Source of the DNA: Notolepis coatsorum
Lineage: Eukaryota; Chordata; Actinopteri; Aulopiformes; Paralepididae
Reading direction: 5' to 3'
Length of the DNA: 64,000 nt
NCBI GenBank assembly: GCA_963971535.1
Contig: OZ020589.1
Location: forward strand, 87,247,796-87,311,795
A program made the position numbers and the translations under genes. The notes below the pieces were generated by a model, which did not search any database, had not been told where the DNA came from, and saw nothing but the letters and a program-made list of their open reading frames with translations. Shown piece by piece: positions 9,401 through 24,400 of this stretch; position 1 is the first letter of the stretch, and each line of letters begins with the position of its first letter.

Positions 9401-12400
9401 AATGTGCAACCCTACTTTCACCTAGTGGTATGAGATGTATTCTTCGTATGGCTGTGCGTACCGCACCGTGACAGCCGTACCGTAAATTCGGGGGACGAAT
9501 ACACGTACCGTTACACCCCTAGCAGCGTTTCCGTTAGCCGGTAATTACCGGTATTTGACCGGCAAAATCTGTTGAAGTCCGACATATTTAATCTCTCCGG
9601 TCTTAATGTCCGGTGAAAATAATTCCCTGAGTCTAAGCACAATTTGATTATTTGAATTGTATAGAAATAGGCTAAAATTAAATAGCCTATGCGATGAACG
9701 AAACAATCATTACATTTGTTTCATCGTTGCTTCTAATAATGACAACGACGTTGTCAGCGAGAGCTTAGTGCTGGGTGTGCAAACTTTTGTGAAGCTGCAG
9801 AGCCTGAGCAGCAGCAGCACAATGCAGTACTCCAGCAGTACTCCAATTCAGCCATTTTCAATTCAATGTTGGGTGGGGGGCGCTGCTGTGCGGTCCCCAG
9901 AAAAGAGCCAATAACAGTTGAATCTGCTGCTCTGCATCGACATACTCTCGCAAATAAGTCATTGGGAGGTGGAGAGAGAGAGAGTCGTCACGCAAACCCA
10001 CGATAATGTTGCCGTCTCTCTCTGCCAAATTTCTCAGTTCTTCGCTTGATATAATTAATACAAATGTCCAATATAACGGAATTCGTTAGCTCATAAAAAT
10101 GTGATTATAACAGACTGTTGTTTATTAATGTCGGGCAACTGCCCACAGACACCTATTTGATTTAAAGTCGGCAGCAGCACGAGTCTCGGGACTTATTTTA
10201 TTTGGAATATAATGACTTTATACGCAAAAGTAGCCTAGTTTTAAGTAAAAATATTATAAATCTACATGCCTTGATGATGTCATTCTTTTGTTTTGTTGTC
10301 ATTCTTTTGCCTATCAATTGTTTTTAAGCTCAATAAACTCTGACCGGAATTTCTCTCATTTGACCGGTAGATTGAAATCTACCGGACACTGAGGCCGGCA
10401 ACAATTTTTTCTAACGGAAACCCTGACCCCTAGTCTGTTAGTTTTCTCTGTTAACTCTGAACGAAAGCAGATTGAAAACCAAAATGGCCGACAGCCATCT
10501 CTGTGAAGTCCTTTGCATCTTAACCACCAAACGTACTTGTTACAAAGGGTCAGATTAAACCGAATATATATATTTATTACTTGAGATATATTGTATAATA
10601 TTTGTATATCGTCTGATATCCCTTGTATATTCTTTGTACATATACACGGAATATCCCTTTACCTAGGTACAGGCCAGACCATAATATTCGTTCTCCTATT
10701 GGACAGCGACCCCTAGGCGCCAACGGCCATACCCCCAATGGCAAGTTCAAAGCTACCGCTAAGACATGTCTCAACATGTCCAGGTTTGCGCAGTAATACG
10801 AGACAGAACTGAGGTTGGCACTAGATTATTCACCTTACGTATAAATACGTCGCAGGTGGATACAGAAGCACTTAGACCAAAACGTTGAAGCCTTCACCAC
10901 GATACAACGTGCCGTGAAGTGGGCCCCATTTGCCCCTAAATAGAGCCTTGAGAACCGCGTGCGAATTGATAGCTAAAGTGTCAGAGTTTAACGCTGTATC
11001 GTCGAGTTCGACTTATTCTATTGTAAAGTAATAGTCTATTATTTATAGTGTATCGTGCGGCTACCGTTCTACAGTGACCAGCATTACCACCGGTTCGTCG
11101 TACCGAGCTAGTGCACTTATCCAGGCTGGGCGGCCTAAACTCGTGCCGCCATCCGAGGAGTCCTAGACGAGAACCGTTGGATATGTACACCGGAGAACCT
11201 ACACCGACGAATGCAGAGCCTTTTCCGGCTGGATTATATTGCTTTGGTACTGTGGCTGCTGGAGCAGAGAACCGTCTACCCCACTGCTGTGTGGGATCTA
11301 CCCTGTGAGGAGCACCGTCGAGCCCGCCTCTAGGACCCACAGAGGCTGGCTAGCTTTCATCCATGCTGTTTTGCATACCGGAGTATAGCTGTTGCTTTGT
11401 CTACGGACCAAAGGATTATTGCACTGTCTCCTGTATCTGGAGTCTCTTTATTCCTCGTTGATCCAGACTTTGCTCCCGACCATTCCTCTCCCCTGCTGGC
11501 TTACAACCGGAGGGAACCCCCTTAGTATCTCCAGCTGACTACGAGTGTGCCTTATGTAATTCTTATGCTACAGGTGGTGTCAATTATACCCATCTTATTA
11601 TACTCATGGACTTATGCTCTTGACCTACTTAAGTGTTCTTCGCCATATAAGCGCAATTCATAATTCTCAATATTGTAACCTATTGTTGCTGCTCTGATAA
11701 TAAATACTTCTAAATATAACTTTCTTTGTTAAGCCGTATTCTTGTGTGGGTGTTCACCAGATATACCGTGTACTGTATGGCCAGTAATTAAAGTACATAA
11801 CTAAGTAGTGGTTTAATGATACCATACTCTCAATACAGTCAGGGAATTGTACCCCTCAGTTACAGTACTCCTGACCTGCCATCACTGCTACCACTAATAA
11901 CGCTGTTCCCATTATCGGTGAGTTAAAATATATTACACAGTATTCACGTGTTCACAAGCCCAATTACTTAATACATTCAGTCAATTCAAGTTGATCACAT
12001 TTTCTAACAACAGACTAAAAGGGAGAATTAGGGTCCAGGCAGACTAGAAAGGAGACTTACGGTCCAGGCAGACTAGACAAAGTAGACTTACGGTCCAGGC
12101 AGACTAGAATGGTGTCCCTCTCCAGCTGAGTGACATGGATGACACACGTCTGGGGGTGGTCTGCAAGAACACATGGGAAAAACACACTGGTATTATACAA
12201 CCTGTTGTTCCCATTGCTGCAAAACCCTTTACGACAATCCGCCTGAGCCAGGTCCAGCAGGCTCAAGGACTCGTACTATCATCAAGCCATCAGGCTCATC
12301 AACACTATTTAGTCATTCTGATTTTATTGTGTGTATTTAGTATTTTAAGTTGATTTTATTCTGCTGTTGCACTTTTTACATCACCCACACTCAGCACTGT

Positions 12401-21400: not shown

Positions 21401-24400
21401 CTTCATCACTGTGCCTCACTGCATCACTGGGCACATGGTGACAGTACTATCAAATATTCCTGGACTTTTACTTTACTAAATCAACACTGTACAATTTTAC
21501 ACTTTTTACTGTACTTACTGTAAATTTATGTACATTTTGACTGTATATTTTAGAATATATATACATAACATAGAAAATGTATATCCCGGACCGTATTTTA
21601 TTCTTATTCGTGATTTTTGTTTTCGACTACCTACATGTTTACTGTGAGTGAGCTGTAGTGCCAAATGTCCCTCGGGATAAATAAAGTATTTCTATTATAT
21701 TCTACTCTATATACATACCTACTGCTTTCACTGTCTACAGCTGCCCTACACTGTAATCATAGTAATCTTAACTACCTACCTCATAGTTTAGTCTACTCAT
21801 AAATAATTCTGTATGATAGTATAGCATGGACAATAGTGCTGTGTATACTGTATATATATACATTTATATTTACTGCATGTGAAATAACAGGCGACATACA
21901 TCTACTCAGCACTCACTCATACACACAGCACTCATCCACACAGCACTCACTCATCCACACAGCACTCACTCATCCACACAGCACTCATCCACACAGCACT
22001 CATCCACACAGCACTCATCACCACACAGCACTCACCCACACAGCACTCACCCACACAGCACTCACTCATCCACACAGCACTAACTCATCCACACAGCACT
22101 CACCCACACAGCACTAACTCATCCACACAGCACTCATCCACACAGCACTCACTCATACACACAGCACTCACTCATCCACACAGCACTCATCCACACAGCA
22201 CTCACCCACACAGCACTTTTGACATCCCTTTGTGTCCGGAATCTTGTTGGAGATGGAAAACTTCCTGAAATCATAAAAAAAGGGATTTTAAGACAGCGTT
22301 TGGTTTACCAGCAACAGAACCCGCTGTGAAGCAAAGCAGGCGAAGTGGAACAGAAACATGCATGTAATGTAGCGGCACCCGGGGCTAACAGCTGTTAGTG
22401 CTGCTGATGCCTGAGGCTAACAGCTGTTAGTGCTGCTGGTGCCTGAGGCTAACAGCTGTTAGTGCTGCTGGTGCCTGAGGCTAACAGCTGTTAGTGCTGC
22501 TGGTGCCTGAGGCTAACAGCTGTTAGTGCTGCTGATGCCTGAGGCTAACAGCTGTTAGTGCTGCTGGTGCCTGAGGCTAACAGCTGTTAGTGCTGCGATG
22601 CTGCATGGGATGATGCAGCTTCCAACAGTCTGGATCTCAAGGATTTACTTTGCCAAGATGACGGAATCATGGTGCTATGACAACCAAATTTCTCCCACGG
22701 GGATCAATAAAGGAATATCTTATCTTATCTTAAAACACCAGACCTTACACATTCGCCTCAGGCTCTGGTAAATGAAAAGTACAATAATTTCCACTACGTT
22801 TACAGATTTCTTTCCATAACCTTTTCCTGCCTTAGGAGAAAGAAGTACAAATACAAATGGCGTGACTTCTCTGGTACTTCTGTGAACATAGGCACCGTGG
22901 TTAGAGGCGGCAGCACTGACCGTGGGATCATTTTGTCGGGCAGCCTGTGGGTAGGGATGGCCATTGGTAGCTTCTGCATCTGCCGAGCGTGGTCGAACAG
23001 ACCGGCCAGGTTGTGACAGTACAGTTGGGAGGCCTTCCCTGCAGGCGAGAGCACAGTGAGCACATCACCTCCACCAGGACGCACACTCTGCAACACGTCC
23101 TATAGACCAGTGTTTCTCAACTGGTGGGTCGCGACCCAAAAGTGGGTCGCAAGGCCATTTTGAATGGGTCATGGATGTGTGTGTAAAGAAAGAAAAAAAA
23201 AGATTAAAAAATAAATAAATAAAAATGTTGCACTAGCTATCTTTGTGAAAGTGGCTTCTCAGCTCTGGTCCAGCTGAAGACAAAGCAGAGGAACAGATTG
23301 GACATTGAGCATGACCTCAGAGTTGCTTTGTCTACCATCACCCCAGACTTTGAGACTCTTGTCAGGAGCAAACAACATCCCCAGTTATCCCATTAGTTCC
23401 CTGGGATGATTAAGCTAAGAAGTCTGCTAAAAAGGATATATTATTTATTATTATTATTATTTTATTTCATTGTGTTTTTAGCCCTAGTTGTACTTTTGTT
23501 GCAACCCCAGTTATCCCATTAGTTCCCCCAAACTTACTGTAGGTCTGTTATGTTAAGCTAAGAAGTCTGCTAAGAAGCATATTCATTTATTATTATTATT
23601 ATTTTATTTCATTGGGTTTTAGCCCTAGTTGCACTTTTGTTGCAACCCCAGTTATCCCATTAGTTCCCCCAAACTTAGGTCTGTTATGTTGAGCTAAGAA
23701 ATCTGCTAAGAAGCATATATTATTTATTATTATTTTATTTCATTGGGTTTTTAGCCCTAGTTGCACTTTTGTTGCAACCCCAGTTATCCCATTAGTTCCC
23801 CCAAATTTACTGTAGGTATGTTATGTTAAGCTAAGAAGGCTGCTAAGAAGCATAATTATTTATTATTATTATTATTATTTTATTGCATTGGGTTTTTAGC
23901 CCTAGTTGCACTTTTGTTGCACTTGTTTGTGTTTATTTCATGTTTTTAACAGTGCATGAAAGATTGTGTATTACTGCAAAAATAAATAAAAATTTAAATA
24001 AATCATAGTCGTTCAAAAATGTGGGTTGCGACTTAATGACTAAGGAAAATGTTGGGTCCCGAGGCTAGACCAGTTGAGAACCACTGCTATAGACCACTGC
24101 ACTTCCGCGTTACATGGAGCCCATGTAACGCGGAAGTGCAGTGTAGCTACGGCTGTGGGGGTGCTGGAGACATGATCCAATATACCTTTTACCAAACTCT
24201 GCATGTGCAGATTGCCCAGGGAGTCTCTGAATTGTCCAGACACACTCCTTGGGGAGTAGGTGCGGAAAAGAGACTATAGATTGGCAGAGAAAATGCTGAT
24301 GGACTTGGGATTGGTCTTTCCGTGTTCAGGAGACTCAGGCGTATACAGAAGTACATTGGATCATGTCTCCAGCACCCCCACAGCCGTAGCTACAGTACAA

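What the first reader, a model, noticed from the sequence alone, without database searches (positions are those of the whole stretch)
12011..22264. Recurrent donor-seeded minisatellites in one gene: a possible undescribed mode of repeat birth
Three of the donors in this partial gene are each the founding copy of a different tandem array, always extending downstream into the intron and always including a few exon bases plus the intact GTRNGT. Minisatellites elsewhere in the window do not start at exons. Chance placement of three founders exactly across exon-intron borders seems very unlikely. One hypothesis is a mechanism acting at donors, such as R-loops, U1-bound transcripts or replication slippage. 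Another is selection retaining duplications that keep a working donor. Tandem AGGT duplication is already discussed as a route to new introns, so these arrays may be raw material for that.
Basis: inference. Interest (0 to 1): 0.87.

Follow-up and report, generated by a model that had tools for sequence, protein, structure and literature searches.

The report
Minisatellites seeded from exon-intron borders
In this fish several short repeated DNA stretches began as copies of the edge of a gene's coding piece; the pattern recurs in other genes of the same fish, at both ends of coding pieces, and resembles a repeat type already described in lancelets, so it is real and unusually visible here but not clearly a new mechanism.

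Summary
Confirmed: in a fish MAP4K3-like gene (minus strand), 3 of 13 donors in the window are the first copy of a tandem array running into the intron (exon ends 22206, 20234, 12092); 0 of 13 acceptors are. Random placement of the gene's 16 arrays gives 0.2-0.3 such donors (P about 0.002, post hoc). Only founder donors are always intact: in one array 3 of 17 downstream copies keep GT.

The whole genome could be sampled. By eye, 6 of 117 credible donors and 2 of 85 credible acceptors in other genes are founders; a fixed rule at the genuine site passes 5 and 2. So it is neither a one-gene oddity nor donor-only. Donors do not significantly exceed acceptors (P 0.37-0.50) or donor-like GT sites (P 0.11-0.41); at strict settings they exceed random intron positions (P 0.015, 0.005, uncorrected).

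Tandem repeats spanning exon-intron borders are known as 'mirages' in amphioxus (PMC3087553, passages). Best reading: mirage-type minisatellites in a teleost, made by ordinary tandem duplication and kept where the exon stays intact. A donor-directed birth mechanism is not shown, nor excluded.

The parts
22206..22264 (-). MAP4K3-like exon (..KCCV|V), donor GTGTGG|GTGAGT at 22206/22205
   Evidence: tblastn with MAP4K3 probes, exon joining, alignment to fish MAP4K3
21907..22217 (-). donor-founded minisatellite, 15- to 19-bp units, 18 marker copies including the exon copy; first copy holds 12 exon bases + GTGAGT; 13 of 17 downstream copies read ATGAG and 3 keep GT
20234..20405 (-). MAP4K3-like exon ending ..CPCFKES, donor AGTCAG|GTACGT; its end aligns with salmonid CPWLKES, so the coding sequence is taken as the ancestor of the array
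20196..20261 (-). exon copy and second copy of the 33-bp donor-founded array
19975..20195 (.). insertion inside the array, T-run at one end and CGTACCTGA on both sides; SINE-like by inference; no Rfam family at gathering score in the window
   Evidence: read
18543..19974 (-). rest of the 33-bp array; with the two copies above 45 units, all with GT at the donor register; a block of about 8 units (264 bp) is itself repeated
   Evidence: block repeat read by eye in the unit list
12092..12160 (-). MAP4K3-like exon (..VCLD), donor TGGACC|GTAAGT
12011..12109 (-). donor-founded array, 29-31-bp units, 3 copies; first copy holds 17 exon bases + GTAAGT; third copy has lost the donor
33629..33711 (-). 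35-bp array, 2.4 copies, beginning about 14 nt downstream of donor 33726; near a donor but not counted as founded by it

Best explanation
These are mirage-type minisatellites. A short tandem duplication (about 15-65 bp) arises anywhere in a minisatellite-rich gene by slippage or unequal exchange. Duplications inside an exon are removed by selection. One that spans a border keeps a complete exon and one intact splice site, survives, and later grows inside the intron. The exon-proximal donor goes on being used and the downstream copies are mostly silent, so they may keep or lose the donor freely. Shown: border-spanning founders at donors and acceptors in several genes, and ancestry of one exon end. 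Inferred: the duplication mechanism, the selection filter and the splicing choice.
For: Three founders in MAP4K3. Six more donors among 117 by eye (L051, L079, L094, L099, L115, L156; five by the fixed rule at the genuine site) and two acceptors among 85 (L093, L126). The donor rate is not significantly above acceptors or donor-like GT sites. Founder units show no reading-frame filter: 3 of 9 typed units have lengths divisible by three, one of them a two-unit 30-mer of the array at 21907-22217. That array lost GT in most copies, so copies are not held to a working donor. The 33-bp array shows a block duplication and carries a later insertion. Its exon end matches salmonid orthologues. The same structure is described in amphioxus (PMC3087553, PMC3902484, passages).
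Against: At strict settings donors exceed random intron positions (4 of 117 against 86 and 61 of 10800; P = 0.015 and 0.005, uncorrected), and MAP4K3 has 3 of 16 donors. With MAP4K3 pooled, donors are 8 of 133 by rule against acceptors 2 of 100, P = 0.12, or 9 of 133 by eye, P = 0.08. These leave room for a donor bias. No transcripts were available to show which donor is used.
Confidence: 0.64

Rival explanations
1. Composition: exon ends and donors are G+C-rich and carry GT-rich words that resemble minisatellite units, so they seed arrays at the rate of any such sequence; splicing plays no part.
For: Donor-like GT sites in introns are first copies at 13 of 867, against 86 of 10800 (0.8%) for any position at the same setting. 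All nine founder units have G+C 0.47-0.61, above the window's 0.43.
Against: At strict settings real donors are still about twice the donor-like sites (4 of 117 against 13 or 12 of 867), though not significantly (P 0.13, 0.11). No G+C-matched control was run.
Confidence: 0.21
2. A donor-directed birth mechanism (R-loop, U1-bound transcript, or slippage at donors) makes arrays preferentially at donors.
For: Donors 9 of 133 by eye against acceptors 2 of 100 when MAP4K3 is included, P = 0.08 (8 of 133 by rule, P = 0.12); strict-setting donor excess over random positions, P 0.015 and 0.005.
Against: Acceptor-founded arrays exist (L093, L126) and without MAP4K3 donors do not exceed acceptors (P 0.37-0.50). 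Units are not G-skewed as R-loops would need (1 of 9 strongly). AGGTAAGT triples are no commoner than reversed-motif triples (2580 against 2422 matches). In the 7 AGGTAAGT arrays inspected on C1 no exon was evident at the 5' edge (by eye).
Confidence: 0.1
3. Chance placement or assembly artefact in one array-rich gene.
For: Arrays cover about 22% of this gene part, the gene was picked after the fact, and its 3 of 16 donors are not clearly above the sample's 6 of 117 (P = 0.08).
Against: Per-intron placement P about 0.002; founders at six further donors on six different contigs; copies differ by substitutions and one array carries a later insertion.
Confidence: 0.05

Closest known systems
Amphioxus 'mirages' (Adh3, globin, troponin C, PGBD5 genes); PMC3087553 and PMC3902484, passages read
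   Same: Minisatellite-like tandem repeats whose unit spans an exon-intron border, at 5' or 3' borders, in several genes, with reported units of 10-160 bp; proposed raw material for new introns.
   Different: Here in a teleost; no transcript or allele-length data.
Human 6-16/IFI6 minisatellite giving multiple splice donors (1995; seen only as a reference-list entry in PMC2572611; content recalled)
   Same: A minisatellite whose units carry a donor next to an exon.
   Different: There copies provide splice donors (from the title); here use is unknown.
Human internal tandem repeats in segmental duplications (PMC2812944, passages read)
   Same: Minisatellites averaging 30-bp units, some at exon-intron borders, proposed to form new introns.
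   Different: Recent primate paralogues; not defined by founder position.
[quoted passage not shown]
   Same: A tandem duplication across an intron-exon border supplies splice signals.
   Different: A new intron is formed there; none was shown here.

Membership tests
amphioxus-type mirage | tandem unit spans an exon-intron border, with the genuine border as terminal copy | tested here: met
   MAP4K3; other loci: (L051 by eye only, 3 exon bases)
amphioxus-type mirage | unit length in the reported range (10-160 bp) | tested here: met
   units of about 15-64 bp
amphioxus-type mirage | either 5' or 3' border can be the founder | tested here: met
   donors in MAP4K3 and six other loci; acceptors L093, L126
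amphioxus-type mirage | present in several unrelated genes | tested here: met
   MAP4K3-like gene, one myosin-head locus, kinase-domain loci, one further CNH-like locus; the last, L156, is below the Pfam cut-off
amphioxus-type mirage | does not disturb normal splicing | not testable with these tools
   no transcripts
amphioxus-type mirage | copy number varies between alleles or somatically | not testable with these tools
   one assembly; block duplication in the 33-bp array only suggests turnover
intron gain by tandem duplication | a new intron lies between the duplicated segments | not tested
   intron positions were not compared between species
donor minisatellite used as alternative donors (IFI6 type) | copies are used as splice donors in transcripts | not testable with these tools
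   no transcripts

The most novel reading that the evidence does not exclude
Donor sites in this fish are a real hot spot for minisatellite birth, through a process tied to splicing or transcription at the 5' splice site, so that roughly one donor in twenty is the founder of an array and single genes can carry several.
Probability: 0.12. Interest if true: 0.8.

Novelty: new member of a known kind. Interest (0 to 1): 0.5.

Why it matters
Border-seeded arrays are a supply of duplicated splice sites next to working exons, the raw material proposed for new introns and alternative exon ends. The amphioxus mirages that I read of were described gene by gene. Here a sample of one vertebrate genome gives about 5% of donors (6 of 117 by eye) and 2% of acceptors (2 of 85), so the intron-gain idea could be tested in one annotated fish genome with RNA data. 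My eight answered literature searches (open-licence library only; listings read, 15 of 84) showed no teleost report of such a survey. A sea bream myostatin paper (PMC3045353, passages) reports intron repeats, without border-spanning units in the passages seen.

Tried and rejected
Genome-wide motif count: triples of AGGTAAGT are not in clear excess over the reversed motif. The count is by match and dominated by big arrays, so it is weak. The same count for AGGTGAGT did not complete.

Selection for in-frame units: not supported, 3 of 9 typed units are multiples of three (one is a two-unit 30-mer). R-loop proneness: not supported. Selection keeping a working donor in copies: contradicted by the 21907-22217 array, not by the 33-bp array.

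Borderline loci not counted as founders: L031 (GTGA microsatellite at the donor; in the automatic count of 7), L152 (array begins a few bases past the donor; genuine site fails the rule), L022 (10-bp array from about +12), and L053, L055, L038, L039, L111 (simple or pyrimidine tracts). L093 was missed by the first filter and found by reading. L051 is a founder by eye but shares only 3 exon bases; it was counted through its second copy, and its genuine donor fails the rule. L156 fails the stricter complexity filter though long, and its domain match is below the Pfam cut-off with a stop upstream of the exon. In one search up to two candidate sites per real exon were tested against one per control site, which favours real sites; one search tests the genuine site of the hits only.

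Rows dropped before counting: 9 of 145 sampled loci as near-identical copies; of the remaining 136, 117 had a credible donor and 85 a credible acceptor by a simple position-weight score typed from general knowledge. Some paralogous copies remain, so loci are not fully independent. Exons were chosen by me from the match lists (60 of the 106 kinase rows without a locus, 20 of 24 CNH rows, 5 further myosin rows), not at random.

My first tiling of the 33-bp array (17 copies) was wrong and was replaced. Exon 4868-4797 is one base too long (4798 is the end). The exon first read as 36957-36848 is 36956-36850; one search tested it 1-2 bases off register.
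Full report
What the window holds. The window is on contig C13 of a 3.42-Gb assembly. The minus strand carries CNH-domain exons of a MAP4K3-like gene: probes found them in order and 12 exons were delimited with splice sites. The exon at 4868-4798 seems to use a GC donor; it was taken one base too long, so the last exon reads out of frame there. 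A 13th exon, 36956-36850, was recognised later. The joined protein's best hit is Osmerus eperlanus MAP4K3, 90% identity over its whole length, so the source is a teleost; the species was not identified.

The observation. Tandem Repeats Finder lists arrays at 12011-12109, 18543-19974 with 20196-20261, and 21907-22217. Aligning 25 exon + 25 intron bases of each donor to the following 800 bases, 3 of 12 donors cross into tandem copies and 0 of 12 acceptors do in the mirror test; with the rule used for the genome sample, 3 of 13 and 0 of 13. One exon end is shown to be ancestral coding sequence..CPCFKES aligns with salmonid ..CPWLKES, and the other two encode KCCV and VCLD, conserved in most aligned fish proteins. 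So the exon came first and the array is derived. The 33-bp array has 45 units, all with GT in register, and an internal repeat of about eight units. It is split by a later insertion with CGTACCTGA on both sides (read), SINE-like by inference. In the 21907-22217 array 3 of 17 downstream copies keep GT, so 'always intact' holds for founders only.

Chance. The gene part has 16 arrays with period 15 or more and TRF score 100 or more, after rejoining the split one. Uniform placement expects 0.22 donor-spanning founders, placement within each array's own intron 0.28; P(>=3) is 0.0014 and 0.0021. Arrays cover about 22% of the gene part, and 3 of 13 against 0 of 13 acceptors gives P = 0.11. The gene was chosen because of the pattern.

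Other genes of the same genome. Exons were taken from Pfam searches for kinase, myosin-head and CNH domains: 60 loci with 1.5-kb flanks, 60 kinase exons with 180-base flanks, 20 CNH exons and 5 myosin exons, 145 in all; 9 near-identical ones were dropped. Founders by reading: donors of L051 (myosin, 37 bp, 8 copies, only 3 exon bases), L079 (64 bp, 2 copies), L094 (23 bp, 6 seen), L099 (32 bp, 4), L115 (39 bp, 5 seen), L156 (about 47 bp, 4 seen; domain match below cut-off); acceptors of L093 (29 bp, 6 seen) and L126 (55 bp, 4 seen). Names of single kinases in my notes are by resemblance and were not tested. Three further MAP4K3 exons outside the window are not founders.

Controls. The same test on flanks: 30 of 867 donor-like GT sites are first copies, 7 of 390 acceptor-like sites are last copies; at the stricter settings 13 and 12 of 867, and 2 and 3 of 390. 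Any position: 302, 86 and 61 of 10800 as first copy. Automatic count of real sites: donors 7 of 117 (P = 0.14 against donor-like sites), then 4 (P 0.13, 0.11); acceptors 2 of 85, then 1. Restricting hits to the genuine site: donors 5, 4 and 4 of 117; acceptors 2, 2 and 2 of 85. Donors against donor-like sites P = 0.41, 0.13, 0.11; against any position 0.23, 0.015, 0.005; against acceptors 0.37, 0.50, 0.50. Acceptors against acceptor-like sites 0.50, 0.15, 0.22; against any position 0.72, 0.15, 0.09. Pooled with MAP4K3: 8 of 133 against 2 of 100, P = 0.12, and 0.18 at the stricter settings. By eye, 9 of 133 against 2 of 100, P = 0.08. P values are not corrected for several settings. MAP4K3 (3 of 16) is not clearly above the sample (6 of 117; P = 0.08). 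So border-seeded arrays are real and recurrent, a mild excess at donors is possible, and donor specificity is not shown.

Genome-wide motif test. Triples of AGGTAAGT with gaps of 8-38 give 2580 matches; the reversed motif gives 2422. Eight arrays appear in the listed rows, all on C1; 7 of 8 were read at their 5' edge and no exon was evident by eye in the bases seen.

Mechanism. Unit lengths show no frame filter and no consistent G-skew. The simplest account is ordinary tandem duplication with removal of those that damage exons, leaving border-spanning ones; the exon-proximal donor is then expected to be used. The duplication step, the filter and the splice choice are inferred.

Known relatives. 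[quoted passage not shown] PMC3902484 (passage) adds PGBD5 and troponin C. PMC2812944 (passages) describes minisatellites at borders in human paralogues. PMC4974935 (abstract) gives intron gain by such a duplication in potato. The human 6-16 donor minisatellite was seen only as a citation. I therefore file this as mirage-type in a teleost, with the splicing and polymorphism features untested.

Noticed in passing
57199-62262 (-): An open frame of 1687 codons; a retroelement is a guess; not read or searched as such.
   Followed up: no
4868-4798 (-): MAP4K3-like exon that seems to use a GC donor (GAG|GCGAGT).
   Followed up: partly
30257-31490 and 32193-32765: Two large arrays in one intron share a 39-bp unit family (CTCTAGTCATTAGTAATAACTGGACTAGTATTACCTG in the consensus units), so one array may have been copied or split within the intron.
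   Followed up: no
17423-18527: A 26-bp array of about 42 copies ends 16 bases from the distal end of the 33-bp donor-founded array.
   Followed up: no
L093 1-185 and L126 1-180: Acceptor-founded arrays: copies of the intron end plus the first exon bases stand upstream of the real acceptor.
   Followed up: partly
15880-16030: Two complementary stretches of roughly 39 bases around GCATGCAGTAGGAGTAGGAAGACG, seen by eye; the repeat finder with a 40-base minimum reported none.
   Followed up: partly
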